Origin: Hydractinia symbiolongicarpus
Lineage: Eukaryota; Cnidaria; Hydrozoa; Anthoathecata; Hydractiniidae
Length of the DNA: 64,000 bases
Reading direction: 5' to 3'
Assembly (NCBI RefSeq): GCF_029227915.1
Contig: NC_079888.1
Span: 19,384,001-19,448,000 of the forward strand
In this document: positions 34,854 to 63,334 of the stretch, piece after piece
Layout of the letters: every line of letters begins with the position of its first letter
Position numbering within the stretch: the first letter of the stretch is position 1
The notes under the pieces: model-generated
Database searches by the model: none
Told to the model about the DNA's origin: nothing
The model's input: the letters and a program-made list of their open reading frames with translations, nothing else
Program-made: the position numbers and the translations under genes

Positions 34854-37800
34854 TTACACCTTGACCTCGTCAGTATGAACATATATTGGATTTTTTTCAT
34901 GGCAATTCTTCACGTACAGTGGATTTTGCGAAACGTCGTGGGATACGGCATACGTATATTCCGACATCGTTGGGTTTTCACTAACGTTAATCTGACAAGT
35001 CGGATATAAATATTCGTGTGATGTTACATCGCTCTTGATGTTAGGAACAGCATAGGACGATGAGTATATTGGATTTCTTGCAATTTCACTGGATTTATTT
35101 TCATGAGTGTCATAGGAAGGATTAGTGACATCTTGTTTTTTACTTTTTATCGATTGTCCGTCATCATTGGCTATAACGACATGCTTGGTTTTACCGCCAT
35201 CTTTGTTTAGTCCGCCATCTTTCGAGTGTTCGTAGTAAGGGTTGCAGGTTTCTTTAGTATTCTAACGAAAGAAAGAAAAATAAGATTAATATTATCCTAG
35301 TTTTTACCCCAGGAATTTTCTGCATCCTTCGCACAAGATTCCTTCTCTGCGCGGAATCGGACAAAAACTGCTACGTCACAATTTTGAGATGATTGATAAA
35401 TGATATCCGCCATATTGATCCTAACCGATGTAACAGATAAATGTTTCGTGTACCTCGTCTTGAAGACCAGCCATATTTGAATACGCATAATCGTACGGGG
35501 AATCGTTTCGTGATCTCATCAATGGTTGTTGTATTGTCTGGTATTGGTGAGATTTTTCTAAAGTAAAAATTTGTAGTAACACAGCTGATGTGTAGCCACA
35601 AAAGTTTTTTAAAACCGAAAAAATTCAAAATTCCTTTCTCACCTTTTTCATGTAAAAATAATGTAGCAATTGGATCTCCTGAAAAAACACAGCAAAAGAA
35701 GTGTTAATACTAACGCTATCAACAAAATTATAAACCAACAATGAGCATTTTTATTTTTTGGATAATATAATATAGATTTATAATTTGATTATCTTCAGGT
35801 CTCAAATGCAAAATGAAACAAGATTAAAAATCAATGAATAAATATGTTCTTATATCTTCTGTAGACAGGGAAACTTTTATTAAGCTGTTAACTATTTGTA
35901 GTAAAGATGTTATAATGTTGACAAACAATGGTTTACACCGCAAAATAGATGATTTAGCAATAGGCAGTCCTCTGGCGCCCATGGTAGCCAATGGCCGGTT
36001 GAGTAGTTTAATTCAACAATCCAACAAAAGAGATGATTCGTTATTGCATAGTCGATACATGGATGATATTTTACGAGAAGTTAAAAGGAATCTGATAGAT
36101 TGGTAAAAATGAATTCCTTACACCCCACATTAAAATTTACTGTAGAATGATAGAAGAATGAGTCGATCGCATTTCTTGATATGCAAAAAATTAACACTGG
36201 ATATAAGTTAATTTCCACTTGATATACAAAGTCCAATGATACGGGACTGCTAATAAACTTTCATTCACTTGCACCTTTGAAATATAAGAATTCAGTGGTT
36301 ATTGGTATGATCCACAGGATCTTCAGAAATTGCAGTTCTCAAAAAATCCTTAAGCTTACAGCGAGCAAAAACAATTCTTGAGAAAAATAGGTGTCCAAAG
36401 TCTTCTGTTTGCTCTATTATAAGAGACACTTTGAAGCAAATAATTATTTGAAAAAGAATGTGTTGAGTCTGAGGAAAGGAAGGAAGAAGAAGATAGAAAA
36501 TTTTGATTATTGAAGGGAAGATCTCAGACCAATCTAAAAAATATCTTACGAAATTAAAGCGCTATTGTCAGGTTATTTTCACTTTAAAGAAATTTTAAAT
36601 TGTTATACCCTCGTAAAATCATCTGCGGATAAATCTCTCAAAAGTGGTGTTGTTTACAAGATTCCATACCCGCGATGCAATTCGTGTTATGTCGGCCGGA
36701 TGCACTCAGTGAACCGTCTAAATGACTCTTGAAGCATTGTTACTCATTGTGTTTTTTTGCTTTTTGCATTTTCTTATGTAAGCCAATGTCTTAAAATTGA
36801 TATCAGTGATAATGGTTTCATCTACTGTTTGTACTTGCAGTAATTTATCAAATTACATAGTTCAGCTGGAACGTCGTTTTGTTTAAAACAGTCAACAATC
36901 GAATTTCTAGGACCAGCAGAGTTTGAGTCATAGCTTATATTACGTAATCTTTTAACACCTTGGTTGAACTCACCTGAATTACTTGTTGCCATTTCAACCA
37001 CTGCGTTGTCTTTCTTTCTAAAGAAGTGAATAATTTTAAAAATTAAGTTTTAAAAGAGATAGGATTGGGTTCACTACGGCAAATAAAATCGCACACTGGA
37101 CCGACCTCGGTGTATAACTATTCTCTTATGGAGTGATACTTTGAAAAAGGTATCTAAATGTAGCATGGGTACAAGCAAAGAAAAACAAATAAACAAATAA
37201 ACTTACGTCGGAATGGATTTTTCACATATTTTGCGTACAATGATGAAAAGGAACAAAACAGTGACAATCAATGCTGCGCAAGTTACACCAATAATAACTG
37301 CCATTTTTCCACTGCCAGTGTCTTCACGCTCACTTCTTACAGCAACCTATATCAATTACAATATTTAGTTATTTTTTCTATTAGGTCATACGTGTGATCA
37401 AATCAGAAATGCAACTTTCCGCGAAAAGAAATTTGCGATTTATCGACCATATTCCCGGTTTTTTTCCACAAAATGTACCAGTATCAGTCATCGCGAAAAA
37501 TAACTTTTTTAAAATTGACAGACAGGCGAACCTAAAGACCAACTTTCCGTGTCTTAACATATCCTACCTATCATTCGCTATAGTTGCATTTTATTAATTT
37601 TGATTTCTCGGCATCTGCAAAAATTAATTCACACCAAAAAATTTGTAAACACCCAATTTAAGAAAAGGTATTTTCATAAAGTGAAGATAAAAAAGTGCAA
37701 AAGAAATTCGCGGAAATTACCTCAATTACGGTTTGGGTAGTTCATTAATGCAAAATGGTCTTTCGTCAAGTACTAAAAGCTACTCAACTCCGCCCAGCTC

Positions 37801-40800
37801 TCGATTTATGTTCTTGTATTTCCAATACATGTAAGGGCTAATGTATATTTCAATCGATAACCTTATTCCATACTGACTATGGCATTATTTACAGATTTTT
37901 ATGACTACAATATTTGGTAAATTTTTGAGGGAATTAGGGAACAAGAATTTTGTTTTTTGGAAATAAAAACCTACCGAATTTAATTTTATATAGTCCTTTT
38001 AATGTTCCACAGCTTTTTTGGAAGTATTTAATACAAAATAGATAAATTATCTAACATTTGCCCTGTGTTTACCTTTTCAAGATGCTAAGGTTTTTTTTAG
38101 GACAGAAAGGGGTTTTCCTGTTTAAATATGCCTAAATTTATTAACCGAAAGACTTTATTTCATTTGCCAATTCGCAAAAGCACGCGAAAACCTCTCTGCA
38201 GTAACTTAAGGATTGCATTCTTCTTTTTACCTCCGTTTTGCTCGACGTAATCCATCCCAACGTTGTTGTGCTTTTACTAAAAGACGTTTCAGTTGTAACG
38301 GCTAACGTTTCAGTTTTAGCGGCTGACGTTTCTCTCCTGACGGATGGCGATACATTTGTTGAGATAGTCGTAGATATTGTGCGGACTAACGCTTCAGTTG
38401 TGACAGTAGTCGGTGAATTCGTAACAAAAGTACGTTCTGTTGTTGTTACTGTTTTTTGTGTCGGAAAGGTTTCTAGAAAAATGTGAGTGAGAATGATATT
38501 AACCTGAATATATAATCAAATATTCAGGTTAACAAATGTTAAAATTTAGGAATAACAAAAATAATATATAAATATAAAACAACTGGAACTTTCTGATTTC
38601 TTTTGAAGATTCATACATTTGAAAATTACGAGCATAGCTACTTCTCGTTTACTAGAATACAACATAGTAACTTTGCCGTCTCCACACCGCAGCTTGTTTA
38701 TTTCATGCCCGTTGTATAGTAATTTAATTACTTCGTGCTAAGAGGAAAACAAGGATGCAAAGAATACCGATACGGGAAATATACATGCGATAGGCGATTT
38801 CCTATGAATTTTCCACTGGCTAGTAACTACTATACCTAACTAGTATAACAACTAGTACGAACAAACGGTACCGAGGATGAATTTCCTGTCTATAAAAACT
38901 ATATGTACATTTTTTTCAATATCCTCCCAATAGAAAACATCGCATTAAATACACTGCAGGCTATATGCTGCAATAGCACAACTTTTCAAGGTGTGTAGAA
39001 CAATGAAACAATATTTAAAATCAGCTAGTTGTGTGTATTATAGCATGCAATTCTTTACTGCTTAGCTATATAGGAATTAGAATACACCCCTCTCTCGACA
39101 AATAATTTCTCAGGGATTTTTAATGGAAGTGTAGGAAAGCAGGTAGTGAAGATCTCTAAGAAGAAGCCGAAATCAGTAATAACTAACGGGCGGCCATTGT
39201 TATGAATCAACGAATTCGCTTGCCCGTCGAAACAAAATGAATAAACAGACAAAATACGACCATCATTATAGAGACTAGTCAATTACTCATTAATAAATTA
39301 CTTCCTTTGCGAGTTGCGAGGGACCTATAAAAAAGCGCTTTGAACCAACAAAATAATGGTAGTCATATATAACTTATGAAAAAATCCAAAGTTTTCCTAT
39401 CAGCAAAATCATTTACTTAGCTAGAATATCATACAAATGTAATATAAAACTTCAAATGCTTCCAGTCATCTTTACATTGCGTTAATCTTAAAAGAGATAA
39501 AAATACTAAGAAGAGAAGAGACAAAATTAGTTCTCTGTTCTACTTACTGCTATTGTCTACGTAAACTCCTTCTATTGTCATTAGAAATGGTATTGTTAGG
39601 TGCGAATTTCCATCTTTGCACTGAAGAGGTAATTTTACTAACATTCCGTATGCTTTGGCGAGATCTCTTTTCGAAGCAGTGTACTATAAAGCAATCGAAA
39701 TTAATTAATACCAGGGAGAAATGACCACGCATATGCATAAAACGCAAGATCGTGCAATAACAAAGCAACTATGTTCACACTTACTTTCAAACAAAGCGAC
39801 CTTGTTGTGTTTCTTACCAACTCAAAGTAGTCCATAAATTGGAAATCAATTCCGCCAGTTACAATGTTAATAAAATACATTCCACCCAAATTACAATCGG
39901 TGACACCATCAATGGGAAGTGAAAAGCTAACGCAAGAATTCAACGTATCCTCGCCGACTAATGGGATAATATCGTTTCGTACCGAAAATGTAACTAATTT
40001 AACTAAACAGATAAGCAGTTGAAAATCAAAAGATAAGAAATATGGATGCTTAATCAATGACTTTTTATCGGTTTAACTCTCGTACTCAAAAGTATTAGAA
40101 ACGAGGCTTACAACAGGTAAAGTAGTAAGCCCGTTTGCCAGCTGAACACAAAGACGCCAATCGTCTTAAAGTCTATTCCAGTAACCTTAAAGTTTTGTGT
40201 ATGCAGATGCTACATCCTCGATTTGGAGTTTTTAACTTGATCAAAATGTTTTAATGACGACACGCCTGTTGTCATGATTATTTACTGAATAATAGAGGTA
40301 GTTTAAAAAAACATTTAGTTAAAAAAAAATTAATTTTAGCTTCCACCACCACTCTTCCCTCAATACACACTCTATCTTGGCTTATCACAGTCCTGTTCAA
40401 AATATAAAAAGTGCAACAAGCCCTGGAAACGAGATTGAGAGTTAACAACATTTTTAATTTTGTCAGAATTAAAGTTATCGGTACAAGACTGGCAATAAGG
40501 CTTGACCTTAAGTACCACAATACAATTTATCCACTTAGGATGGAGAAAACGAATAAATGATATGTGAAGCTTTTACCTTTTAAGATTTTCTCAATTTCCA
40601 TTTTACTTTTACATCCGTGGAGGTATGAGTAAAAAACCGTCTTGGTATTGCAGCTACAATGGGTACAAGGAACTCCACCGCAGCTAGCATTTCTTAAACT
40701 GCAGAATGAAGTATCATTATACGGGTTGGTGAACTCATCAATGGATTGATATATGGATGAAGAACGTTTACGCTCTACTACTACCAGTAAATTGGCTGTA

Positions 40801-40844
40801 CTGATGCCGAGTACTGTGCACACGAAGTATTGAAGCTTGTACAT
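34854..40844 (-). CDS. Receptor A: type I membrane protein with Cys-rich ectodomain and five NPxY tail motifs
   Basis: Nine exons (transcription order): 40577-40844, 39818-40002, 39548-39683, 38231-38472, 37207-37346, 36974-37017, 35643-35678, 35454-35557, 34854-35261. Together they encode 520 residues. The start is the ATG at 40842-40844, which begins a signal peptide (MYKLQYFVCTVLGISTANLL). Cysteines 48, 55, 60, 63, 65 and 78 form C-x6-C-x4-C-x2-C-x-C-x12-C around an NAS glycosylation sequon. Exons 2-3 add a further ectodomain region, exon 4 an 80-residue Thr/Ser-rich mucin-like stalk, and exon 5 the membrane span (about 292-314). The tail has NPYY, NPSY, NPIY, NPLY and NPIY at 392, 432, 448, 498 and 509. 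NPxY motifs bind PTB domains and clathrin adaptors in known receptors. I know no named family for this ectodomain; a recognition receptor is inferred. AATAAA follows about 150 bp after the stop (34697-34702). Confidence 0.82.
35834..36760 (+). mobile_element. Penelope-like element remnant in an intron of receptor A, copy 1
   Basis: Plus-strand frames give the RT core in pieces: FIKLLTICSKDV, then HRKIDDLAIGSPLAPMVAN and RYMDDIL (the catalytic YxDD-type motif). After a frameshift come NSLHPTLKFTVE, TGLLINFHSLAPLKYKNSVV and SGVVYKIPYPRCNSCYVG, the start of a GIY-YIG endonuclease. Stops and frame changes make it inactive. It is antisense to the host gene, inside the intron between exons 6 and 7. 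Confidence 0.85.
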
Positions 40845-43800
40845 ACTAATGAAGAATAAATATAAAAAGTAAATGAATAAATAAATCAAAATAGAATATG
40901 ACATCTAAACGCTAAATGTTTAAATAAATAGCTAATTAACAAAAAACAACAACAAGGAAACGAACGAGCGAGAGAAAGCGTAACACGAAATATAAAACAA
41001 AACACATTGTTTGCTTCGAGCCTGTTACCCAGGGCCTATTACCTACAGCGATTATTGCATATCGCGCGCTTTCAATTTTTGAGCAGAATTAACGCACGAG
41101 AGTAATAAGTGCAAACTGAAAAAGAAAAGACAAAACAAAAACACATTCTGTGTTTGATACTAACTTTTCTTAGCCGCGCAAAAATTAAAGGTTGCGCAAA
41201 ATTTAACCAAGCAGCAGCAAAAATGTTTTCAAAACTTTTTCCAAATCTGACACTGTCTACAATCTCTAGGCATAAGCCAGACTGCAGTTTTGTATAGAAG
41301 ACTAGGTTTGTCATTATATTTTTAGATAAAATGCTGATTAGGCTTGATCCGGCGTATTTTTATATTCCACAACGTGGTAAGAATAGGGCAAATGTCCCGC
41401 ATTTTACACCATCGTAACTCAACCGGTGCGACTCGGTATGTATAATATATGTTACTAACAAGGCCTCTTAAAATATCACAAACAATCTGTGAATAATAAT
41501 ATAGCCTGTCAAGCATGTTGTATATACAAAACTGCCATAAATTGTAACAGCGGTGATAACAGTAAAACATCGTTCCCAGGATCCACCGACCCCTGATCCT
41601 TATAACGGAGCGGTCAACAATTTTCGCTGCTATAAGTTAATCAAAATGGCGCAGAAACGAGGGCGAATACCGGTAATTACCGGCTCCCAAAAATTTGTCA
41701 TGTATAACAACAAAACAGTTGTTTAGTAAACCTTTCTGGTTTTTTTTTACTAAACAGTGCTTTATTTTTTCTTATGCACAACAAAATTTTGTTGACACTA
41801 CCATACTGTTGTCAGAAATTAATTTGGCGTAATTACACTTTTAGTTTTCGGCGGTGTTCATGTCCTCGTTGTGAAGAAATAATTCTTCGCTCGTACAACA
41901 AATGTCTCCTGTAGGTGAAAATGATTTATCTAAAGAATTATAAAAGGAAAGCGAAGAAGGGAAAAATTTATGGGTACCGTCGTTGATTTTGAAGTGCTAC
42001 ATTGCCAACATGGCAAGCGTTTGTGGATAAAGAAAACCGTTTTTAGCCAAACTTGTGCTATTCGAAGTTACCATCTTTAGATCGCGGACAAACTGATGAG
42101 CGACGGTTGTCATTATGAATTAACGAAAATCCACCCGTATGTACTATTTTATGCATTACTTAGCACGACCCTGGACTTGCGAACACCCATACAAATTGCG
42201 GTTATTAACATTTGTCCCGTTTGGTCTAAAAATAGAGCGACTAGTCGTTAGCCTTGGAGATCTCCAAAAAGAACCTCACGAGAATTCGCCTGTTGCTATC
42301 AAAAGTACCATTTCTAGCTTACGGGAATTTGCCAGTCGAGTGGGAAAAATATATATGCTCTTTCTCCCTCGCACACAACATACAGAAAATGGGGTATTAT
42401 TAATATAGGGAAAATTGCAACACCTAAAAAGGGAAAATTGCAACACCTAAAAAAATATTTTACCTACATTATAAAAAGTTAGCCATGTCAACTATTAGCG
42501 CTTTTAAATTTTATACAATGTAGTATTACTCAACTGCATCTAGCAACCATCTTTGTACGACATTTTAACAAAATAAAAAACGATCTATTTATCCTCAGTG
42601 CGATAGGTAAACAAATGCCATAAAAACTAATATACCCAACAAATAAAAAACAACCTAGGTACTAGAGTTCTCCTGGTTTGCCTTATACGATGATACTTAT
42701 TAGCACAGAACACTGGAACCGAAGTGTGGTAACGTGAATAGTTTCCGTGACGTCACCATGTATTTTTAGTGCAGAATTTTTTTAAACCATATATGCCAAC
42801 TCCAACGTCTTGTAAGCCTAGGTAAACATAAATACGCGAACAAGTTTAAAATTCTTCGTATTTCTGTGTTGACAGGCTTTATCCTACCAAACGTGGAAAT
42901 AACTATTTGTTTAACCTATAGCAGGCGCTATTCTTCTACCCCGCCTTATTCCGTGTGTTCTTATGGTCTTAATACAAGCCGTTATCATAGGGCGGCGAAA
43001 TTCGTCTTAAAAACAAACTATTTTGAGTGCGAACTTGCTTATATCCGCCACTGATGGATGACTATGTTTATACTGCTGTAGTATTCTGACTGGACGTTTA
43101 TGTATCGCACAGGTGTCCGTCCGTTTAAGTCTTTACCCTAGATGATTAGACGCCCCCATGAATTTAAAATCTGGATTTACTGCAGTTTGTACATGTTTAC
43201 ACTATTTCAGAAAGATATTTATTTTTGCATTGCGCAATTTTTATTCAATAAAGAAGACCTAAGCTCGTCCCAGGCTCCATGTGATCTGATTAAACATAAA
43301 AAAGAAGCCGTGATAATAAAACCGATGCCGAGAAGATAATCTGGGAGATGTTTGCTGGTTGCAGTGATATAAAGCAAATGGATAACCTTTTTTATACCCC
43401 ATCGTTAGTAAAAAGTGCTGTAAATAATCGAATATATAACCCCAATAGCAGAAGCCAAACCAGCAATCTCGTTTCCAGGGTTTGGATATACACAAGACAT
43501 ATATAGACATAACTTAAATGTTTACATCACATGAAAAGTTTCATTCCGAAATTATTTTCAAAAAAGACAAAACTAGATAAGAAATACGTTCAACGGGCTA
43601 CAAAACGGCTGTTGGTTTTCGACCTTATTGACTTACACAAATTACCTTCTTAAAGCTAGTAACATAGCATTTTTAACAAATACATCTCCTCGTGCTGTCT
43701 CTGTTTCATCGTCAAAACAAACTTTTAATTTACTGATATTTAATACATTTTACAAACCGTAGCTTAATATACCGCCAATAATACTGAAGGGAAATTTTTC

Positions 43801-44666: not shown

Positions 44667-45221
44667 TCATTGATGAAAGATTACAGTCCCCACTTCGTCA
44701 TATTCTTTTCTTGCTGAGTCAGCACTACCATGCATTACGGATCCAACTTCGTCGTATTGATCAGACTGGAAAGCAAACGTTTTTGGTTTATCTCCACTTA
44801 AAAGAGGAGATTTGTCGTCATCAAAATCAATCCCGTTTTGGACAATTTGTTTTTCTTTGACATCGCTATACACAGATGTGTCGTAATCACTACCTGGAAT
44901 TTGATTAGCGCGTTTGTCAATTCGCTCTTCTGCGGGTGAATAGTACAGGTTTTCAGCTTGCTTGTCCTGCAATTATTTTAACATAATATATAAAACTATT
45001 ATTTTGCACATAGTGCAAAGATTTTACAAAAATCACAGACGACAGACAACGCGACAAAAATAGTAACAACAACAATGACGAAATAACGAAGACAAAAATA
45101 ATAATAATAATAATAAAACAACGACAAAAATGACAAAAATTGACAAAACAATAAATTACCTTCCCATCAACTACATCTACAGTTTCGTACTTTGGAATGT
45201 TATTTTCATCTTGACTTGTTA
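44667..45221 (-). pseudogene. Orphan 3' fragment of receptor B (last two coding exons)
   Basis: Exons 45160-45221 (62 nt) and 44667-44966 (300 nt with TGA) are identical by inspection to the last two exons of receptor B at 56735-56796 and 56242-56541. They encode TSQDENNIPKYETVDVVDGK and the 99-residue tail with YSDV and two YDEV motifs. The duplication boundary at 45373/45374 falls in the intron upstream, so seven of nine exons are absent. The acceptor and donor sites are intact. The upstream sequence is now the 3' flank of receptor A'. The fragment is either non-functional or used as extra tail exons. Confidence 0.9.
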
Positions 45222-46428
45222 CTGAAAAAAAAGAAACGTTTAAGTGGATTCACGCTAAGGAGACAATCACAAATCCTATTGCACGCTTTTTTGAATAAGA
45301 AACACCAATGTTTTGGTTCAGCCTTAATTTCATTTTTTATATATATATAAATTGAGTCTAACTTAAGTTTTTTGATTTGTAATTAAACAAATTCATACGG
45401 CGCGGTCGGGTCCTGCTAAATTGACTTTTAGGGAAAAAATAATAATGGCGGCGCTTTTTCTTGGGTAGGTTGGTAGCTAAATTTAACTTTACCCTTTCCC
45501 TCCCCCTCCCATCACTACAATCCTCCTAAAGCAACCTCGGCAATAGTGAACTGTTCAACTTTATAAAAACAGGAATCCATAATGGTAGACTAAGTAGGGA
45601 CAAACGAACTCAAAAAATATCTATGGCTAATGGCTTTGTTAATTAATCCAACTAAAACTTAATCAAACCTTTCAAACATTTTTGAAAAGCATTCAGCCTA
45701 AAAAAAAAGAAAATGTTTGCAAAGATTAATTTTTTTCCTTTTGCTATCACAGCGGTGTTAAAACAACAGCACTAAGTGGTTAGACTAAATTTGGGACTGG
45801 CAGAATTAGGGCCGGCGTTAATAGGACCGATAAGGTGGAGAAATGACGTGAATATCTTATATACTATAGCCATATTGCTTGCGGAAGAACATTCCTTATG
45901 ATGGTCAGAAGAAAACCAGGAGGTTAATCAACTTGTGCAGGTCACCTATCTTTACACTCTAAATACACGGACGGCTGATTCCACTAATTCCAAATTTTTA
46001 ACCCTATTCCTGCTGGACTATTGGAGGCTCCTAAATGCTGCCACCCTCTCTGTAATTTTAAAAGTTGTTGCTTAATAGACAAGGAACTTTGAAAGAGTGT
46101 TGCACAGGCCTTAAGTAGAACCTTCGATAAACAAACAGGAACTTGCTGGGCGTGAAAGGAAATATCTAAGCTCGCAAGCAAAAATTGTAAATTACCTTGC
46201 CATAAAAATGACGATGAGGATCTGCGCAACTGAAGGAGACTATAAAAGTAATTTTAAATTACATGCGCGTTTTTATTTCAATTCATTGACAATGATAAGT
46301 CACATATACATAGTTTTAACCTTCTTAATTATTTGAACGAGAACACCCTCGGTCTTGTCTTACTCATATAAAACAGATTCGTGTGAATTCTAGTGATCAT
46401 GATATATAACAATATTCATGTTACGCTG

Positions 46429-49400: not shown

Positions 49401-52400
49401 TACATGTAAGGGCTAATGTATATTTCAATCGATAACCTTATTCCATACTGACTATGGCATTATTTACAGATTTTTATGACTACAATATTTGGTAAATTTT
49501 TGAGGGAATTAGGGAACAAGAATTTTGTTTTTTGGAAATAAAAACCTACCGAATTTAATTTTATATAGTCCTTTTAATGTTCCACAGCTTTTTTGGAAGT
49601 ATTTAATACAAAATAGATAAATTATCTAACATTTGCCCTGTGTTTACCTTTTCAAGATGCTAAGGTTTTTTTTAGGACAGAAAGGGGTTTTCCTGTTTAA
49701 ATATGCCTAAATTTATTAACCGAAAGACTTTATTTCATTTGCCAATTCGCAAAAGCACGCGAAAACCTCTCTGCAGTAACTTAAGGATTGCATTCTTCTT
49801 TTTACCTCCGTTTTGCTCGACGTAATCCATCCCAACGTTGTTGTGCTTTTACTAAAAGACGTTTCAGTTGTAACGGCTAACGTTTCAGTTTTAGCGGCTG
49901 ACGTTTCTCTCCTGACGGATGGCGATACATTTGTTGAGATAGTCGTAGATATTGTGCGGACTAACGCTTCAGTTGTGACAGTAGTCGGTGAATTCGTAAC
50001 AAAAGTACGTTCTGTTGTTGTTACTGTTTTTTGTGTCGGAAAGGTTTCTAGAAAAATGTGAGTGAGAATGATATTAACCTGAATATATAATCAAATATTC
50101 AGGTTAACAAATGTTAAAATTTAGGAATAACAAAAATAATATATAAATATAAAACAACTGGAACTTTCTGATTTCTTTTGAAGATTCATACATTTGAAAA
50201 TTACGAGCATAGCTACTTCTCGTTTACTAGAATACAACATAGTAACTTTGCCGTCTCCACACCGCAGCTTGTTTATTTCATGCCCGTTGTATAGTAATTT
50301 AATTACTTCGTGCTAAGAGGAAAACAAGGATGCAAAGAATACCGATACGGGAAATATACATGCGATAGGCGATTTCCTATGAATTTTCCACTGGCTAGTA
50401 ACTACTATACCTAACTAGTATAACAACTAGTACGAACAAACGGTACCGAGGATGAATTTCCTGTCTATAAAAACTATATGTACATTTTTTTCAATATCCT
50501 CCCAATAGAAAACATCGCATTAAATACACTGCAGGCTATATGCTGCAATAGCACAACTTTTCAAGGTGTGTAGAACAATGAAACAATATTTAAAATCAGC
50601 TAGTTGTGTGTATTATAGCATGCAATTCTTTACTGCTTAGCTATATAGGAATTAGAATACACCCCTCTCTCGACAAATAATTTCTCAGGGATTTTTAATG
50701 GAAGTGTAGGAAAGCAGGTAGTGAAGATCTCTAAGAAGAAGCCGAAATCAGTAATAACTAACGGGCGGCCATTGTTATGAATCAACGAATTCGCTTGCCC
50801 GTCGAAACAAAATGAATAAACAGACAAAATACGACCATCATTATAGAGACTAGTCAATTACTCATTAATAAATTACTTCCTTTGCGAGTTGCGAGGGACC
50901 TATAAAAAAGCGCTTTGAACCAACAAAATAATGGTAGTCATATATAACTTATGAAAAAATCCAAAGTTTTCCTATCAGCAAAATCATTTACTTAGCTAGA
51001 ATATCATACAAATGTAATATAAAACTTCAAATGCTTCCAGTCATCTTTACATTGCGTTAATCTTAAAAGAGATAAAAATACTAAGAAGAGAAGAGACAAA
51101 ATTAGTTCTCTGTTCTACTTACTGCTATTGTCTACGTAAACTCCTTCTATTGTCATTAGAAATGGTATTGTTAGGTGCGAATTTCCATCTTTGCACTGAA
51201 GAGGTAATTTTACTAACATTCCGTATGCTTTGGCGAGATCTCTTTTCGAAGCAGTGTACTATAAAGCAATCGAAATTAATTAATACCAGGGAGAAATGAC
51301 CACGCATATGCATAAAACGCAAGATCGTGCAATAACAAAGCAACTATGTTCACACTTACTTTCAAACAAAGCGACCTTGTTGTGTTTCTTACCAACTCAA
51401 AGTAGTCCATAAATTGGAAATCAATTCCGCCAGTTACAATGTTAATAAAATACATTCCACCCAAATTACAATCGGTGACACCATCAATGGGAAGTGAAAA
51501 GCTAACGCAAGAATTCAACGTATCCTCGCCGACTAATGGGATAATATCGTTTCGTACCGAAAATGTAACTAATTTAACTAAACAGATAAGCAGTTGAAAA
51601 TCAAAAGATAAGAAATATGGATGCTTAATCAATGACTTTTTATCGGTTTAACTCTCGTACTCAAAAGTATTAGAAACGAGGCTTACAACAGGTAAAGTAG
51701 TAAGCCCGTTTGCCAGCTGAACACAAAGACGCCAATCGTCTTAAAGTCTATTCCAGTAACCTTAAAGTTTTGTGTATGCAGATGCTACATCCTCGATTTG
51801 GAGTTTTTAACTTGATCAAAATGTTTTAATGACGACACGCCTGTTGTCATGATTATTTACTGAATAATAGAGGTAGTTTAAAAAAACATTTAGTTAAAAA
51901 AAAATTAATTTTAGCTTCCACCACCACTCTTCCCTCAATACACACTCTATCTTGGCTTATCACAGTCCTGTTCAAAATATAAAAAGTGCAACAAGCCCTG
52001 GAAACGAGATTGAGAGTTAACAACATTTTTAATTTTGTCAGAATTAAAGTTATCGGTACAAGACTGGCAATAAGGCTTGACCTTAAGTACCACAATACAA
52101 TTTATCCACTTAGGATGGAGAAAACGAATAAATGATATGTGAAGCTTTTACCTTTTAAGATTTTCTCAATTTCCATTTTACTTTTACATCCGTGGAGGTA
52201 TGAGTAAAAAACCGTCTTGGTATTGCAGCTACAATGGGTACAAGGAACTCCACCGCAGCTAGCATTTCTTAAACTGCAGAATGAAGTATCATTATACGGG
52301 TTGGTGAACTCATCAATGGATTGATATATGGATGAAGAACGTTTACGCTCTACTACTACCAGTAAATTGGCTGTACTGATGCCGAGTACTGTGCACACGA

Positions 52401-52419
52401 AGTATTGAAGCTTGTACAT
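46429..52419 (-). CDS. Receptor A', duplicate of receptor A
   Basis: Exons: 52152-52419, 51393-51577, 51123-51258, 49806-50047, 48782-48921, 48549-48592, 47218-47253, 47029-47132, 46429-46836. The 520-residue protein appears identical to receptor A: no coding difference was seen, and the one base difference noticed between the two units falls in an intronic Penelope-like remnant. All splice signals and phases are the same. The whole upstream region is also duplicated, so both copies should have equal promoters for at least 3.8 kb. Unlike copy 1, the gene downstream of A' in the direction of transcription is the orphan B fragment. Confidence 0.82.
47409..48335 (+). mobile_element. Penelope-like element remnant, copy 2
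   Basis: Same remnant as at 35834-36760, in the matching intron of receptor A'. It differs at 47449 (A instead of C), changing Thr to Asn in the dead frame. Confidence 0.85.
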
Positions 52420-55400
52420 ACTAATGAAGAATAAATATAAAAAGTAAATGAATAAATAAATCAAAATAGAATATGACATCTAAACGCTAAATGTTTAAAT
52501 AAATAGCTAATTAACAAAAAACAACAACAAGGAAACGAACGAGCGAGAGAAAGCGTAACACGAAATATAAAACAAAACACATTGTTTGCTTCGAGCCTGT
52601 TACCCAGGGCCTATTACCTACAGCGATTATTGCATATCGCGCGCTTTCAATTTTTGAGCAGAATTAACGCACGAGAGTAATAAGTGCAAACTGAAAAAGA
52701 AAAGACAAAACAAAAACACATTCTGTGTTTGATACTAACTTTTCTTAGCCGCGCAAAAATTAAAGGTTGCGCAAAATTTAACCAAGCAGCAGCAAAAATG
52801 TTTTCAAAACTTTTTCCAAATCTGACACTGTCTACAATCTCTAGGCATAAGCCAGACTGCAGTTTTGTATAGAAGACTAGGTTTGTCATTATATTTTTAG
52901 ATAAAATGCTGATTAGGCTTGATCCGGCGTATTTTTATATTCCACAACGTGGTAAGAATAGGGCAAATGTCCCGCATTTTACACCATCGTAACTCAACCG
53001 GTGCGACTCGGTATGTATAATATATGTTACTAACAAGGCCTCTTAAAATATCACAAACAATCTGTGAATAATAATATAGCCTGTCAAGCATGTTGTATAT
53101 ACAAAACTGCCATAAATTGTAACAGCGGTGATAACAGTAAAACATCGTTCCCAGGATCCACCGACCCCTGATCCTTATAACGGAGCGGTCAACAATTTTC
53201 GCTGCTATAAGTTAATCAAAATGGCGCAGAAACGAGGGCGAATACCGGTAATTACCGGCTCCCAAAAATTTGTCATGTATAACAACAAAACAGTTGTTTA
53301 GTAAACCTTTCTGGTTTTTTTTTACTAAACAGTGCTTTATTTTTTCTTATGCACAACAAAATTTTGTTGACACTACCATACTGTTGTCAGAAATTAATTT
53401 GGCGTAATTACACTTTTAGTTTTCGGCGGTGTTCATGTCCTCGTTGTGAAGAAATAATTCTTCGCTCGTACAACAAATGTCTCCTGTAGGTGAAAATGAT
53501 TTATCTAAAGAATTATAAAAGGAAAGCGAAGAAGGGAAAAATTTATGGGTACCGTCGTTGATTTTGAAGTGCTACATTGCCAACATGGCAAGCGTTTGTG
53601 GATAAAGAAAACCGTTTTTAGCCAAACTTGTGCTATTCGAAGTTACCATCTTTAGATCGCGGACAAACTGATGAGCGACGGTTGTCATTATGAATTAACG
53701 AAAATCCACCCGTATGTACTATTTTATGCATTACTTAGCACGACCCTGGACTTGCGAACACCCATACAAATTGCGGTTATTAACATTTGTCCCGTTTGGT
53801 CTAAAAATAGAGCGACTAGTCGTTAGCCTTGGAGATCTCCAAAAAGAACCTCACGAGAATTCGCCTGTTGCTATCAAAAGTACCATTTCTAGCTTACGGG
53901 AATTTGCCAGTCGAGTGGGAAAAATATATATGCTCTTTCTCCCTCGCACACAACATACAGAAAATGGGGTATTATTAATATAGGGAAAATTGCAACACCT
54001 AAAAAGGGAAAATTGCAACACCTAAAAAAATATTTTACCTACATTATAAAAAGTTAGCCATGTCAACTATTAGCGCTTTTAAATTTTATACAATGTAGTA
54101 TTACTCAACTGCATCTAGCAACCATCTTTGTACGACATTTTAACAAAATAAAAAACGATCTATTTATCCTCAGTGCGATAGGTAAACAAATGCCATAAAA
54201 ACTAATATACCCAACAAATAAAAAACAACCTAGGTACTAGAGTTCTCCTGGTTTGCCTTATACGATGATACTTATTAGCACAGAACACTGGAACCGAAGT
54301 GTGGTAACGTGAATAGTTTCCGTGACGTCACCATGTATTTTTAGTGCAGAATTTTTTTAAACCATATATGCCAACTCCAACGTCTTGTAAGCCTAGGTAA
54401 ACATAAATACGCGAACAAGTTTAAAATTCTTCGTATTTCTGTGTTGACAGGCTTTATCCTACCAAACGTGGAAATAACTATTTGTTTAACCTATAGCAGG
54501 CGCTATTCTTCTACCCCGCCTTATTCCGTGTGTTCTTATGGTCTTAATACAAGCCGTTATCATAGGGCGGCGAAATTCGTCTTAAAAACAAACTATTTTG
54601 AGTGCGAACTTGCTTATATCCGCCACTGATGGATGACTATGTTTATACTGCTGTAGTATTCTGACTGGACGTTTATGTATCGCACAGGTGTCCGTCCGTT
54701 TAAGTCTTTACCCTAGATGATTAGACGCCCCCATGAATTTAAAATCTGGATTTACTGCAGTTTGTACATGTTTACACTATTTCAGAAAGATATTTATTTT
54801 TGCATTGCGCAATTTTTATTCAATAAAGAAGACCTAAGCTCGTCCCAGGCTCCATGTGATCTGATTAAACATAAAAAAGAAGCCGTGATAATAAAACCGA
54901 TGCCGAGAAGATAATCTGGGAGATGTTTGCTGGTTGCAGTGATATAAAGCAAATGGATAACCTTTTTTATACCCCATCGTTAGTAAAAAGTGCTGTAAAT
55001 AATCGAATATATAACCCCAATAGCAGAAGCCAAACCAGCAATCTCGTTTCCAGGGTTTGGATATACACAAGACATATATAGACATAACTTAAATGTTTAC
55101 ATCACATGAAAAGTTTCATTCCGAAATTATTTTCAAAAAAGACAAAACTAGATAAGAAATACGTTCAACGGGCTACAAAACGGCTGTTGGTTTTCGACCT
55201 TATTGACTTACACAAATTACCTTCTTAAAGCTAGTAACATAGCATTTTTAACAAATACATCTCCTCGTGCTGTCTCTGTTTCATCGTCAAAACAAACTTT
55301 TAATTTACTGATATTTAATACATTTTACAAACCGTAGCTTAATATACCGCCAATAATACTGAAGGGAAATTTTTCTTTTTAGAAAAAAAAGTAGCAAATT

Positions 55401-56241
55401 CATCAGAAAAAATTAATTGTTTATAAACAGGTTGTCTAGCCGTCTATGTGGTTCTAAGGTGTGTATAATTTCTTGCACATTGACCTTCTGAGTGGTCCGT
55501 TTATTACACGCTATTCCTTGAAAATTGCGGGAATCGAGCTTCCGAAATCGTTTCGTAGCCCTTAAAGTCCAACACTTCATTTAATCTTTTGTGTGTGGAA
55601 AGTTGTAATGAATTGTAGGTGGAGAAACGTTTCATTATATTGAGCACTCCCTATGCGACAATAACTTTACGCAGACTTCTACAAAAACACCTTTTGTGTA
55701 TTCAATCATCTTGTACGGTTAGACACAGGAGAAACATTGAACAAGCAAGTACAACTCTTCATCACATAGAAAAACACGAACGCTGTGTTATGTAAGTAAA
55801 AGTTGCAACAAAAATATTTTACAGCATGTAAAAAAATATACTTCCTAATACGAAATGTAAATAAGAATATAAAACTTCAAACATTTAAATAAAAATATAA
55901 ATAAATAAATATAAATTAAGTCACCTATATAAATAATGTCATGTGAAACGTGCATGAATATTATACCTCCTGCACCAAATATCGTTCACTGAAAAACTTT
56001 TGGGTAATCGAGTCGAAGGAGGAATTTACTAATTTACTTTTGCCTCTATGCCGCATGTACTTTTTAACACCCTAGAAGATTACCGCCCTTCTTTTAACGC
56101 CAGTGAAAATTCAAAAATATAAAAACATCACACAATGACCCAAGAGAAAAGCACTGGAGACAAAAAACAAACAAACAAACAAACAAACAAAAGGCAAGTG
56201 ACAAACAAGATTTATGCTTTTTTAACACCGATAAGGTGATG
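52420..56241. other. Intergenic region upstream of receptor A', copy 2
   Basis: Exact repeat of 40845-44666. Lies between the A' start and the receptor B stop codon. No extra gene seen. Confidence 0.5.
55170..55561. mobile_element. MITE, duplicated copy of family member 2
   Basis: Identical by inspection to 43595-43986, carried along by the tandem duplication rather than inserted independently. Confidence 0.7.
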
Positions 56242-59200
56242 TCATTGATGAAAGATTACAGTCCCCACTTCGTCATATTCTTTTCTTGCTGAGTCAGCAC
56301 TACCATGCATTACGGATCCAACTTCGTCGTATTGATCAGACTGGAAAGCAAACGTTTTTGGTTTATCTCCACTTAAAAGAGGAGATTTGTCGTCATCAAA
56401 ATCAATCCCGTTTTGGACAATTTGTTTTTCTTTGACATCGCTATACACAGATGTGTCGTAATCACTACCTGGAATTTGATTAGCGCGTTTGTCAATTCGC
56501 TCTTCTGCGGGTGAATAGTACAGGTTTTCAGCTTGCTTGTCCTGCAATTATTTTAACATAATATATAAAACTATTATTTTGCACATAGTGCAAAGATTTT
56601 ACAAAAATCACAGACGACAGACAACGCGACAAAAATAGTAACAACAACAATGACGAAATAACGAAGACAAAAATAATAATAATAATAATAAAACAACGAC
56701 AAAAATGACAAAAATTGACAAAACAATAAATTACCTTCCCATCAACTACATCTACAGTTTCGTACTTTGGAATGTTATTTTCATCTTGACTTGTTACTGA
56801 AAAAAAAGAAACGTTTAAGTGGATTCACGCTAAGGAGACAATCACAAATCCTATTGCACGCTTTTTTGAATAAGAAACACCAATGTTTTGGTTCAGCCTT
56901 AATTTCATTTTTTATATATATATAAATTGAGTCTAACTTAAGTTTTTTATCTAAGCGATAATAAGAGTCTAATATCGCTAAGATAAAATACGGAGTTGAG
57001 TTTATAGAAAGATATTTTTTGAGCTGCATCGTTGATCTTCGCTTATCTTCACAACAACAACAACAACAACAATAACAACACCACCAACAACAACAACCAA
57101 TATAAACAACAACAAAAACAACAACAAGGACAACAACAACGACAACAACAACAGCAGCAAAACAAAAACAATAACTCAATTTTAAATAAGAAATCATCAG
57201 ATGCGATGAAAATTGACTTGACGTTGGATTCTAAGTTTAATAATGTTTTGCTCCTTAGTACAACAAAATCATTCCTAGTGAATGATTCAGTAATGGTGCA
57301 TAAAACCGAATATTCCTAAAACTATATTCGCTGGTTAAGATGACACAAATAATACTACTTCATACCTAAAGTAGTTTCCGCGTATACATGTTCATCTCCT
57401 AAAATAAAAATTTATTTTTCAGCTTCGGTTGGAAACACTAATAATTCTTCTTTTTCTAAAAGTCCCATTCTTACACAGAAATTATAAACCCCGCCCTCTA
57501 TTAAGCCCCCACCTAACTTAATATCCTTGAGAAATAGTCCTTCGGGTTATTTGAGAGTTGACAGTACACTGTACAACTATTATTTAAATTTGATAATTTA
57601 GTTTATAGTCGTGGAAAAACGTCGCTCGCTGCTACTCGCAGCTACTATTTTTAGCAGATAGATGGAAAGTGAAGTATTATTTAATTAATATTAGTGGAGT
57701 ATTATCTCTTTAACAATAGTCTGTCTGTCTGTGTGTCCGCGAAAGCCGTGTCCCGTAACGGAAACACGAAATTTTTAAAATGCGCATCAATACCAAATGC
57801 GATAAATGTCCACTTTGTTGCGACGGGTTAATATAAAGGACGGGTGACCCCGTGGATTTTTCCACGGGCTAACGACTTCTATATTATATACCCGTATACG
57901 TCTGTCCGTCTGTCACGCAAAATGGTAGCTTAGCTGCGCAAGTAGGGAGACGCACGCAGTACGGTATGAAAAGGACGGGCGAACCCGTGGATTTTTCCAC
58001 GGGCTAACGACTAGTTTAGTTAATATTAGTGGAGTATTATTTAGTTAATGGAATATCACCTGGTAAATCATTAAGAGGTGTTTCACGTTCTTTCTTCTTT
58101 CTAAAGAAATAAAAAATAATCATTAATTACACATTTCCACATACAGTCTGTATATTAAGAACAGTTACAGATTTATACATTGTCAGATTTATATGAATAA
58201 CACGTTAATACAAGTGACAGACTTTATGTGATTGAGAGACTTAAAAATGATTGACAAGCTATTTGATAGACAGAATTATATAATTGACAGATTTATATGA
58301 TCGACAGATTTTTATGACTGATAGGTTTCTATAATTGAAAAACTTATATGCTCGGCATATTTTTATCATGGACAAGTTTATATGATTGACAGGTTTATAT
58401 GATTGACAGGTTTATATGATTGACAGGTTTATATGATTGACAGGTTTATAAGATTGACAGGTTTATATGGTTGACAGGTTTTTAAGATTGACAGGTTTAT
58501 AAGATTGACAGGTTTATATGATTGACAGGTTTATAAGATTGACAGGTTTATATGATTGACAGGTTTATATGATTGACAGGTTTATATGATTGAATAAGAT
58601 TCATCTAAAAATGGTAACATTACTACCATTATTTAACATAGGCATTGTAATAACTTTTAAACGAACTGAATCTTTTTATAATAAATATAGTTGTTTTTTA
58701 AAGTTATTTTAAGTTTTTAATTGCCAAATAAAAACTAAACAATCTGTCAATCAAAAGGATTGACAGCTGTCAAATCAAATGGAATCCTGGTGCTTATAAT
58801 ACTAAAAATGGAAGTGTAAGACTTAATTGCTGATTGAACATATCATAAATATAACACTAAACCTCTGAGAGATAAATTTAAACGTTCTCTCACCCTTCTC
58901 CCATCTTTCTTCTCCAACATAGTACACTGGCTACAACAATGATGAATATTAGCAGTACACTGACTACAATAGCTGCAACCACTGCAGGCTTACTTTCTTT
59001 CTGTTTTTTTGTGGTAACCTGCAAAGCAGAAATAATACAGAACAACACTCAAGCTTCAACACATATGACAAACATGTATCAAGGCTTTATTAGGTGGTGT
59101 AAAGATGCTGTCAAACTTTTCCTAAATTTTTGTAAATATTACAATGTTGCTGTTTTTACTTCTTTGAAAATGGGCAAAGCAAGGCAAAGGAATACGCAAT

Positions 59201-61822
59201 CTTGGAAAAAGGTGAATACAATGGGTATTCTGAAGGAGGACGCTGCAACCCTGGATATAATATAGTGGAAAGGGATGGAACGAAAAGGAGCGGACTTAAG
59301 GATCTTAGGTTATTTCGCTAGATCCAAAATCTTAAACGGTAATAATTTCTGCTGATGTCAGCATGACTCAAACTTTTCACACGTTTTCAAACCAAGGAGC
59401 AGATTGTTCCATAACACGGACATTGTGGCAATTGCAGCTAGCGCATTTTGACATTAATAACTTAGCCATACTTCTCCCAAGTAAAAAATGTTTGCAAGCT
59501 ATTGACTGCAGAGCACTGATTAAGTGATGCTGTTAGGCCATTTCAAAAAAAGCCAAAAATCTGGCTTTTTCCAAAAATATTGTAGCTTGGGTTGAAGATG
59601 ACTTTTAAGGTCAAATTTTAGTTTTTTAAGAGGGACAGTAAATTAAAGTTTTAATGAAAAATACAGACAGCATCTAAAGGATTTCTAAATATCTATTTTC
59701 TCTACTGTTTCCGCTTTTCATGCCTAATAAATTTCATTCTAAAGACATAAACTTACTGTTGTGAGTGGTACAGAAGTACTACGTGGTAAATCTAAAACAA
59801 ACAAAATAACTATGTAAATAAATTAATAAATAAATAAAACTATCACTTTGTATAGGAGATTTTTAACTAGTTATAGCCGCCAAAACCTCCCACCTCCCCC
59901 GTCGTACATATTCCGGTCCTCAGATTATTTTTTTTTAAGAAACAACATACCTTTAATCTCTGATCCAGCCACTTTAAACATCATACACGTATGGCGATTC
60001 TCATCATGTGTAAATTGAAGATAAACCAAAGCAGCTTTAAAATCTTTTTCTACTTCACAAGACCTATTTTCACACTATTGAAAATTAAGAAATTAATAGA
60101 AAAAAAAATACATATTTTTTATGTCATTGCTGATAATATAATAATGAGAATTGACCTGGTTAGAAATCCGGTTAATCTTATAATTAATTTATACTGCTTC
60201 TTAATTTATACTGCTTCTTAATTTATACTGCTTCTTAATTTATACTGCTTCTTAATTCACACTGCTTCTTAATTTATACTGCTTCTTTATTCACACTGCT
60301 TCTTAATTTATACTGCTTCTTAATTCACACTGCTTCTTAATTTATACTGCTTCTTAATTTATACTGCTACTTTATTTATACTGCTACTTTATTTATACTG
60401 CTTCTTAATTTATACTGCTTCCTAAGTTATACTGCTTCTTATTTCACACTGCTTCTTAATTTATACTGCTTCTTAAGTTATACTGCTACTTTATTTATAT
60501 TGCTTCTTAATTTATACTGCTTCCTAATTTATACTGCTTCTTAATTCACACTGCTTCTTAATTTATACTGCTTCTTAATTTATACTGCTACTTTATTTAT
60601 ACTGCTTCTTAATTTATACTGCTTCTTTATTTAAACTGCTTCTTAATTCACACTGCTTCTTAATTTATACTGCTTCTTAATTTATACTGCTACTTTATTT
60701 ATACTGCTTCTTAATTTATACTGCTTCTTTATTTAAACTGCTTCTTAATTCACACTGCTTCTTAATTTATACTGCTTCTTAATTTATACTGCTTCTTAAT
60801 TTATACTGCTTCTTTATTTATACTGCTTCTTAATTTATACTGCTACTTTATTTATACTGCTACTTTATTTATACTGCTTCTTTATTTATACTGCTTCTTA
60901 ATTTATACTGCTTCTTAATTTATACTGCTTCTTTATTTATACTGCTTCTTAAGGGTTTTTATGTAGGAGACATAAAATTAAGACAGCTGAAGTCGGAATT
61001 CACATTTATATTTTATGCAGTTCTGGACAAAAACTCAAGAAAAAAAATTTGTATATCGTTTTTCCAAAAAAAAAAAAATTTCGCCATATTAAAAAACCTC
61101 GCGAAAATTAATTTATTACATGTGCGAGAAATTACGTCAATGGCAAAAAAAGTCGACAGATAGTACGATAAACAATAAGAAGACATACAAGAGTACTTCA
61201 TACCTCTAAACACAAGTGACCATCTGTATTATCTTGTTCACATGAAAAGTATTTTGGAGTAACATATTGCAGCATTTTTCCGCCCAAAATATCAATAACC
61301 GACACGTTATTGACGTCGTTACAATGTAAAACGGACTTTGGAACCTCGATCTTTTTGCATTTATAATAAAAATCATTCTTAATGATGACCTTTCTTAGAC
61401 CATCCTTAAACTTGAAAGCACAGGTATCGCCATCTGAAATACATTGTATACAAAGACTTATGTAAAGCACAACACTAAAAGACAATACGAACAAAAAATA
61501 GAAATGAAAATTAAACAAGTGATGTTAACAACTCACTATTTAGTATTTTCTGCACACTGTCATCATCATGGCAGCCATGTTCATAAGACAGAAATGTGGT
61601 AGAGTCATTACATTGGCACATATGACAATCATCACCAAAACATGTGGCATTTCTTTTTTGACAGAAGTCTTCTTTGCTTATTCCAAAGTTTGTGAATTTA
61701 TCAGTAGGACATGTATCGCCATCACATGCTTGACGTAACACTTTCACTTTAGAGCAGGATACGAAGATTACACATAAGATGTAGAAAATGAATATTGATA
61801 GAAAATAAATGTTTTTTGTCAT
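56242..61822 (-). CDS. Receptor B: type I membrane protein, paralogue of A, with YDEV tail
   Basis: Nine exons: 61537-61822, 61204-61433, 59951-60074, 59757-59791, 58894-59018, 58060-58100, 57366-57398, 56735-56796, 56242-56541. They encode 411 residues. Intron phases (1,0,1,0,2,1,1,0) equal those of receptor A, proving common descent. Residues 1-23 are a signal peptide (MTKNIYFLSIFIFYILCVIF). Cysteines 54, 61, 66, 69, 71 and 84 repeat the spacing of receptor A, again with a sequon (NAT). Exon 2 resembles exon 2 of A only weakly. The stalk exon has 11 codons against 80 in A. The membrane span is about 237-260, followed by WRRK. The tail has SVYSDV (ITIM-like), PLL and two YDEV motifs (383 and 401). 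It shares PLL and YDEVGS with receptor C. Phosphotyrosine signalling is inferred. Confidence 0.82.
57045..57172. repeat. CAA-rich trinucleotide repeat
   Basis: Imperfect CAA/AAC repeat in the receptor B intron between exons 7 and 8. The Asn/Gln-rich frame on the plus strand and the Val/Cys-rich frame on the minus strand are artefacts of it. Confidence 0.9.
57705..57877 (+). mobile_element. Short Helitron, first of a pair in a receptor B intron
   Basis: Starts TCTCTTTAACAATAGTCTGT and ends with the hairpin CCGTGGATTTTTCCACGG then GCTAACGACT. It shares the AAACACGAAAT and GGACGGG words with the array at 11670-12110. The final CTAG is incomplete where the next element begins. Confidence 0.65.
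57878..58014 (+). mobile_element. Short Helitron, second of a pair in a receptor B intron
   Basis: Starts TCTATATTATATACCCGTAT and ends with the hairpin CCGTGGATTTTTCCACGG and GCTAACGACTAG (CTAG 58011-58014) followed by T. No coding capacity. The pair is flanked by a 21-bp direct repeat (57684-57704 and 58020-58040). Confidence 0.7.
58370..58597. repeat. 17-bp minisatellite (GATTGACAGGTTTATAT), about 13 units
   Basis: Units of GATTGACAGGTTTATAT or TTATAAG variants. Degenerate copies start near 58235. Lies in the receptor B intron between exons 5 and 6. Confidence 0.9.
60178..60953. repeat. 17-bp minisatellite (TACTGCTTCTTAATTTA), about 45 units
   Basis: Long array with recurring variants (CACACTGCTTCTTAATT, TACTGCTACTTTATTTA) in a higher-order order. 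Lies in the receptor B intron between exons 2 and 3. Not a CRISPR array: there are no spacers. Confidence 0.95.
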
Positions 61823-62657: not shown

Positions 62658-63212
62658 CTACTTTTCGTCAGAATTTATGATGGAACCAACTTCATCATAA
62701 CCTAAGCGTTTATTAGTGTCTGCCTTGCCAGCATCTTTATCAAGTAGAGGTGTTTCAATTTCATTCTTTTGATCATTTTCACAATATACAGTTGCATATT
62801 CCGATTTTTTCGCTTGATCTTGTTTCACTTGCGCAACATCGTACTGGTCATAGATGTGTTCGGGGGGCTGTTGGTCCGTAGTATATAAATTATTTTCGCT
62901 TTCTCTATTTGGCATGCCAGTAACAACGTCTGTAGAAGGCTTGTAGTAGATGCTTGTAGCTTCTTTGTTTGTGGATGCAGGCTGAAGTAATAAAAAACTA
63001 AATCGTGCAATGGAGATTTCCAGTGCTAGACGTCTACGCAATATTAAGTACTTATTTTCTGACATTTCTGATATTTTCCCTCATTCTATGAGGCATTTTG
63101 GACTTGTACAGATATTCCTAAATGTTTCCAAAGTAAAACATAAATTTAATACAAGCGTATATATAAAATTGACGAAATTCAGTCTTTGCCAATATTATTT
63201 TAAATAAAAATC

Positions 63213-63243
<31 letters not shown>

Positions 63244-63334
63244 TGCATCTTACTTACTTTACCATGATCAAGACTTGCATATGCATACACGTTCTGTTTA
63301 CTAGAAGGTACATCAGCTGGTTTTATGTTGGTTT
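62658..63334 (-). CDS. Receptor C, cytoplasmic-tail exons only (gene continues beyond the window)
   Basis: Exon 63258-63334 (77 nt, entering in the same phase as exon 8 of A and B) reads TNIKPADVPSSKQNVYAYAS then LDHGK. It splices in phase 0 to 62658-62981 (107 codons plus stop). The tail has IYDQYDV, SEYATVY and LGYDEV. SEYATV and LGYDEV both fit the ITIM pattern (S/I/V/L-x-Y-x-x-I/V/L). The end ETPLLD then GYDEVGS matches SPLLS and YDEVGS of receptor B, so C is closer to B than to A. The ectodomain and membrane exons must lie to the right of the window on the minus strand. The donor of the 77-nt exon (AAA then GTAAGTAAG) is strong. Confidence 0.78.
63213..63241. repeat. AGAC microsatellite
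   Basis: About seven CAGA/AGAC units, next to the 77-nt exon of receptor C. Confidence 0.9.

What the first reader, a model, noticed from the sequence alone, without database searches (positions are those of the whole stretch)
34854..63334. Cluster of paralogous type I receptors with a conserved nine-exon plan and an unnamed six-cysteine ectodomain motif
Receptors A and B have nine coding exons with the same intron phases (1,0,1,0,2,1,1,0). Both show C-x6-C-x4-C-x2-C-x-C-x12-C containing an N-A-S/T sequon. Outside that motif the ectodomains are highly diverged. C shares the tail exons. All lie on one strand. This looks like a fast-evolving, tandemly expanding receptor family. I know of no named domain for the motif. 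A role in allorecognition or immunity is plausible from the architecture alone.
Basis: partly seen in the sequence, partly recalled or inferred. Interest (0 to 1): 0.88.

Follow-up and report, generated by a model that had tools for sequence, protein, structure and literature searches.

The report
Hydractinia cluster of orphan surface receptors
A run of related cell-surface receptor genes with an undescribed six-cysteine domain sits on one chromosome of the colonial hydroid Hydractinia, away from its known self/non-self recognition genes, so it is a real new receptor family whose job is still unknown.

Summary
The window is Hydractinia symbiolongicarpus, contig C14. A and B have nine coding exons with phases 1,0,1,0,2,1,1,0. 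A database protein that looks transcript-derived crosses all eight A joins and changes only A's exon-2 donor.

The cluster continues past the window with C, D, E and F: seven motif exons in 64 kb, one strand. Two genome searches give the same nine motif exons, all on C14, one adding a chance-level C15 match.

The cysteines are conserved; the N-A-S/T sequon is not (3 of 8 distinct genes). No known domain was recognised in the ectodomain. Tails hold 9 NPxY motifs against 0.26 expected.

Best reading: a small, perhaps lineage-restricted orphan receptor family signalling through phosphotyrosine-type tails. Allorecognition is not supported: the published complex is on chromosome 3, and published crosses rejected unlinked dominant modifiers. 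Divergence is clear between paralogues; in the one closer comparison the globular ectodomain varies no more than the tail.

The parts
34854..40904 (-). Gene A, copy 1 (RefSeq name LOC130626090 fits either identical copy): exons 40904-40577, 40002-39785, 39683-39548, 38472-38231, 37346-37207 (TM), 37017-36974, 35678-35643, 35557-35454, 35261-34854; a second Met at 40844 is the likelier start
   Evidence: Splice model; exon 2 corrected by P0002/P0003
46429..52479 (-). Gene A, copy 2: identical protein, exons 52479-52152, 51577-51360, 51258-51123, 50047-49806, 48921-48782, 48592-48549, 47253-47218, 47132-47029, 46836-46429
40611..40703 (-). Six-cysteine motif of A copy 1 (same at 52186-52278 in copy 2)
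56242..61822 (-). Gene B (LOC130625763): exons 61822-61537, 61433-61204, 60074-59951, 59791-59757, 59018-58894 (TM), 58100-58060, 57398-57366, 56796-56735, 56541-56242
   Evidence: P0001 (isoform X2) is identical from within exon 2 to the stop
61571..61663 (-). Six-cysteine motif of B
44667..45221 (-). Orphan second copy of B exons 8 (45221-45160) and 9 (44966-44667), without the rest of the gene
   Evidence: a 30-base pattern of exon 9 found at exactly 2 places in the genome
33799..45373 (.). First copy of an 11,575-bp direct tandem duplication
   Evidence: blastn self-comparison 99.991%, 1 mismatch
45374..56948 (.). Second copy of the tandem duplication; it lies next to B exon 7 and so holds B's own 3' end
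62658..64000 (-). 3' part of gene C: exons 8 (63334-63258) and 9 (62981-62658); exon 7 at x=64145-64101, the membrane exon at x=65341-65205 and exons 1-3 at x=70960-67114 lie outside the window on the same contig
   Evidence: D, E, F follow with motif exons at x=79296, 87650, 98451

Best explanation
This is a small family of single-pass surface receptors, seen only in Hydractinia-labelled or unnamed sequences so far, made largely by tandem duplication on contig C14. Exon 1 gives a signal peptide and an undescribed six-cysteine module, probably three disulfides; exons 2-3 give a domain of about 118-128 residues, probably beta-rich; exon 4 of A and F a Thr/Ser-rich stalk; exon 5 the membrane helix; exons 6-9 a tyrosine-rich tail. 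Most likely an unknown ligand binds the two-part ectodomain, the tail tyrosines are phosphorylated, and PTB or SH2 adaptors or endocytic adaptors dock. A and F (mainly NPxY tails) and B, C, D (YAE / YDEVG tails) would report through different adaptors. Shown: gene structure, paralogy, copy number at the sensitivity used, motif enrichment, no known domain by profile. Inferred: surface display, disulfides, ligand binding, phosphorylation, and the two signalling classes.
For: Exon plan and phases and a database protein crossing all eight A joins. Paralogy: exon 1 in 15 of 15 pairs, z 12.6-24.9; six cysteines and N-A invariant in A-F and in G and H. Nine motif exons in the genome, all on C14, from two different queries. 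G and H carry exon-2-like and exon-3-like frames downstream, judged by eye. Tails of five of six cluster genes: NPxY 9 seen versus 0.26, YDEVG 4 versus 0.00, YAE[TMVS] 5 versus 0.06 in shuffles (patterns picked after reading the tails). No convincing ectodomain match in Pfam or PDB sequences.
Against: No expression site, ligand, surface localisation or phosphorylation was tested. Of seven tail patterns tried, ITIM-type (4 versus 1.76, p 0.10), Yxx[ILMV] (14 versus 9.49, p 0.08) and acidic-before-Tyr (23 versus 27.09, p 0.85) are not enriched, and YxxP only marginally (7 versus 3.25, p 0.04). E has a short tail and no accepted exon 3, so it may be decaying. RefSeq truncates A before its membrane helix (P0003), so a secreted form is possible. 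Lineage restriction rests on word-limited searches.
Confidence: 0.7

Rival explanations
1. A second allorecognition system, or an outlying Alr-type immunoglobulin receptor cluster: ectodomains bind homophilically and mark self.
For: Single-pass receptors in a tandem cluster in a species with allorecognition; Alr proteins have low overall identity and their Ig membership was confirmed with AlphaFold predictions (PMC11067881, passages); three Alr-like genes lie outside the complex (PMC11876637, passage); the low-confidence model of A resembles Ig and cadherin sandwiches.
Against: Not on chromosome 3 (PMC11876637 and PMC13119343 passages; scaffolds numbered by length, PMC10411563 section 13). Unlinked dominant modifiers rejected: 37 of 37, 10 of 10 and 10 of 10 homozygotes fused (PMC3276163 passages). 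No Pfam Ig match for A and B at E up to 1 or for exons 2-3 of C, D, F at E up to 10. Globular ectodomain of A not more variable than its tail against P0002.
Confidence: 0.07
2. Receptors or adhesion proteins for a non-immune job (cell contact, gamete or stolon biology), with divergence from relaxed constraint after duplication. This shares the receptor anatomy of the main reading and differs in the job.
For: Nothing in the sequence is specific to immunity; NPxY tails also serve adhesion and endocytic receptors (recalled); the family is small, nine motif exons.
Against: Strong divergence of exons 2-3 beside a fixed cysteine frame and recent duplication fit recognition genes better; not decisive.
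Confidence: 0.35
3. The 11,575-bp repeat is an assembly error, so A is single and the cluster has six genes.
For: Identity is 99.991% against a published heterozygosity of 1.33% (PMC11067881 passage), so the copies are almost too alike.
Against: No N in the 322 kb, and the join has no shared bases: a string-graph assembler needs a read across it (inference). Read N50 of 13.2 kb exceeds the unit (PMC10411563 section 13). An uncollapsed second haplotype should differ at about 150 sites, not one.
Confidence: 0.25

Closest known systems
Hydractinia Alr family (allorecognition complex)
   Same: Same species; single-pass receptors in clusters with diverged ectodomains and tail motifs resembling immune signalling motifs (PMC11067881, PMC11876637, PMC3276163, passages)
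   Different: C14 instead of chromosome 3; a six-cysteine module in exon 1 not mentioned for Alr in the passages read; no Ig profile match; ectodomain not shown to be hypervariable. Alr sequences themselves were not compared
Immunoglobulin superfamily receptors with ITIM/ITAM tails
   Same: Type I layout, possible beta sandwich in exons 2-3, tyrosine motifs in the tail
   Different: No Ig profile match; ITIM motifs not enriched; the tails carry NPxY and YDEVG instead
VWC-type cysteine modules (comparison recalled, from no call)
   Same: A C-x2-C-x-C core
   Different: No VWC match in Pfam for A and B at E up to 1 or for exon 1 of C, D, E, F at E up to 10

Membership tests
Alr (allorecognition complex) family | Located in the complex on chromosome 3 | tested here: not met
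   Window is C14:19384001-19448000; all nine motif exons on C14. Three Alr-like genes outside the complex are reported (PMC11876637), so position alone is not absolute
Alr (allorecognition complex) family | Immunoglobulin-like ectodomain | tested here: inconclusive
Alr (allorecognition complex) family | Hypervariable ectodomain with allele sharing controlling fusion | tested here: inconclusive
   One relative only: exons 2-3 7/118, tail 13/184 differences; source of P0002 not named; fusion not testable here
Alr (allorecognition complex) family | Direct sequence similarity to Alr1 or Alr2 | not tested
Type I single-pass receptor | Signal peptide, one membrane helix, cytoplasmic tail in one reading frame | tested here: met
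Localisation not tested
NPxY / PTB-adaptor receptors | NPxY motifs in the tail | tested here: met
   A 5, F 2, C 1, D 1, B 0; 9 versus 0.26 expected; E not given; adaptor binding not testable

The most novel reading that the evidence does not exclude
The C14 cluster is a second, so far unseen, recognition system of Hydractinia, unlinked to the allorecognition complex, built on a new six-cysteine module, with paralogues of opposite or different signalling (NPxY versus YDEVG tails) and copy number that changes between animals. It would act where the published crosses could not look: recessive or dosage effects, or recognition of microbes rather than kin.
Probability: 0.12. Interest if true: 0.85.

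Novelty: new variant of a known kind. Interest (0 to 1): 0.5.

Why it matters
Hydractinia is one of few invertebrates with genetically worked-out self recognition. A separate tandem receptor family with an undescribed ectodomain, truncated or missing among the database entries found here, gives a concrete set of nine motif exons (eight distinct genes) to test for polymorphism, copy-number change, infection response and function. It also adds a cysteine-rich module that the profile libraries searched did not recognise.
Full report
What the window is. Protein searches with B and A returned H. symbiolongicarpus RefSeq entries LOC130625763 isoform X2 (P0001) and LOC130626090 (P0003), each on a 24,932,500-b contig. 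The HSymV2.0 paper numbers its 15 scaffolds by length, with N50 33.3 Mb and L50 7 (PMC10411563, section 13), so a 24.9-Mb contig should not be chromosome 3, where the allorecognition complex is placed (PMC11876637 and PMC13119343, passages). That the papers and the assembly share one numbering is my inference.

Gene structure. B has nine exons with good splice flanks and phases 1,0,1,0,2,1,1,0; A has the same. P0002, a 431-residue reading frame on a 1,654-base contig of an unnamed source 'lgn' (I take it for assembled sequencing runs; that is my inference), runs from the end of exon 1 to the stop and crosses all eight A joins. It and P0003 lengthen A exon 2 by 33 bases to 39785. RefSeq's A reads on past the exon-4 donor and so lacks the membrane helix. 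P0004, an exon-1 relative, differs from A mostly upstream of A's second Met (40844), so that Met is the likelier start.

The missed duplication. 33799-45373 and 45374-56948 are the same 11,575 bases with one mismatch, head to tail, with no shared bases at the breakpoints. It doubles A and leaves an orphan pair of B exons 8-9 between the A copies; B itself stays whole through the right-hand copy. A 30-base pattern from B exon 9 occurs at just these two places in the genome. Published heterozygosity is 1.33% (PMC11067881, passage), so this is hardly a second haplotype. I favour a young real duplication, because a gapless blunt join needs a read across it, but no reads were available to me.

The cluster. 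I fetched 258 kb beyond the right end of the window and 30 kb beyond the left. A relaxed motif scan of 322 kb (window plus right side) gives 7 matches, all on the minus strand: A twice, B, C, D, E, F; the reversed sequence gives 1 relaxed and 0 strict. A protein-level scan of all 352 kb at E up to 0.05 finds no further copy and nothing in the left 30 kb; its sensitivity for exons 2, 3 and 9 across genes is low. Exons 1-3 were built for C, D and F, exons 1-2 for E; membrane exons were found for these four. My splice-site filter used the A/B phases, so agreement of phases in C-F is not an independent test. Not located, and not searched for systematically: exons 4 and 6 of C and D; 4 and 6-8 of E; 6 and 8 of F; F exon 4 only as candidate sites. 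For E a shortened exon-3-like frame near x=85383 was seen and not accepted.

The family in the genome. With B's exon 1, 9 of 9 scored candidates match at E up to 10, all on C14: seven in the cluster, one at 2.56 Mb (G, E 2.4e-6) and one at 8.14 Mb (H, E 3.9e-4). With E's exon 1 the same nine appear plus one on C15 (E 0.445, with a stop) that I count as chance. Within the 1.8 kb fetched for each, G and H show exon-2-like and exon-3-like frames by eye, including an exon-3 signature of a hydrophobic strand, Cys, loop, then C-[FL]-L-F-[KQ]-V-E-G. Their membrane and tail exons were not looked for.

Conservation. Exon 1 is 36-49% identical in 15 of 15 pairs of A-F (z 12.6-24.9). Exon 2 z values run from -0.2 to 15.7 (15 pairs), exon 3 from about 0 to 8.6 (10 pairs, E lacking), exon 9 from -0.6 to 7.1 (10 pairs, E left out). 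The six cysteines and N-A are invariant in the eight distinct genes; the S/T that would make a glycosylation site is in A, B and D only. Against fast ectodomain evolution: A and P0002 differ at 7 of 118 residues in exons 2-3, 10 of 74 plus a 7-residue gap in the stalk, and 13 of 184 plus a 12-residue gap in exons 6-9. The stalk gap has the length of one unit of the 21-bp repeat at 38284-38332.

Tails. For A, B, C, D and F (five of six cluster genes; C, D and F lack unlocated short exons) seven patterns were counted against 2,000 shuffles: NPxY 9 against 0.26, YDEVG 4 against 0.00, YAE[TMVS] 5 against 0.06, YxxP 7 against 3.25 (p 0.04); ITIM-type 4 against 1.76 (p 0.10), Yxx[ILMV] 14 against 9.49 (p 0.08) and acidic-before-Tyr 23 against 27.09 (p 0.85) are not enriched. 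The patterns were chosen after reading the tails and the genes share ancestry, so these are not independent tests. NPxY sits mainly in A and F, YDEVG in B, C and D. I infer two signalling classes. That NPxY binds PTB and endocytic adaptors is established knowledge, recalled.

Function. Allorecognition is the tempting reading and the evidence runs against it: another chromosome, no Ig profile match, no excess ectodomain variation in A, and crosses in which all 37, 10 and 10 homozygotes fused, rejecting unlinked dominant modifiers (PMC3276163, abstract and passages). That paper leaves recessive and dosage effects open. A search of the held open-access library for the two LOC names returned no paper; two broader searches returned none and nothing relevant among 10 listed of 4,294. 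The paper describing the Alr family (Huene et al. 2022) is not held; I know it only from passages in others.

Verdict. A real, small, perhaps lineage-restricted receptor family with a conserved exon plan and an undescribed cysteine module. It is a new family of a familiar kind: tandem single-pass receptors.

Noticed in passing
33799-56948: Head-to-tail 11,575-bp duplication with one mismatch, not mentioned in the finding; needs read-level confirmation.
   Followed up: partly
6558-11800: Plus-strand frames resembling ZC3HC1/NIPA (name recalled): zf-C3HC match 3.5e-6 at 6558-6956 and NuBaID_C 1.8e-4 at 11450-11800.
   Followed up: no
22629-23024: Small secreted-looking protein with weak PAN/MANEC similarity (E 0.0026 and 0.0046, below cut-off).
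   Followed up: no
25137-25562: 12-base minisatellite, open in all six frames, reading PSVR or DGRT repeats.
   Followed up: no
58167-58593 and 60184-60952: 17-base minisatellites inside introns of gene B (about 25 and 45 copies).
   Followed up: no
57831-58029, 11886-11955, 25514-25578: Short dispersed element with a palindromic core (CCGTGGAAAAATCCACGGG in the 57970-58029 copy).
   Followed up: no
9860-10034 and 43811-43986: 177-base dispersed repeat, 88.7% identical.
   Followed up: no
38284-38332: 21-base repeat in A's stalk exon; P0002 has a 7-residue gap there, so stalk length varies.
   Followed up: partly
16669-17943: Minus-strand frames for a very acidic D/E-rich protein.
   Followed up: no
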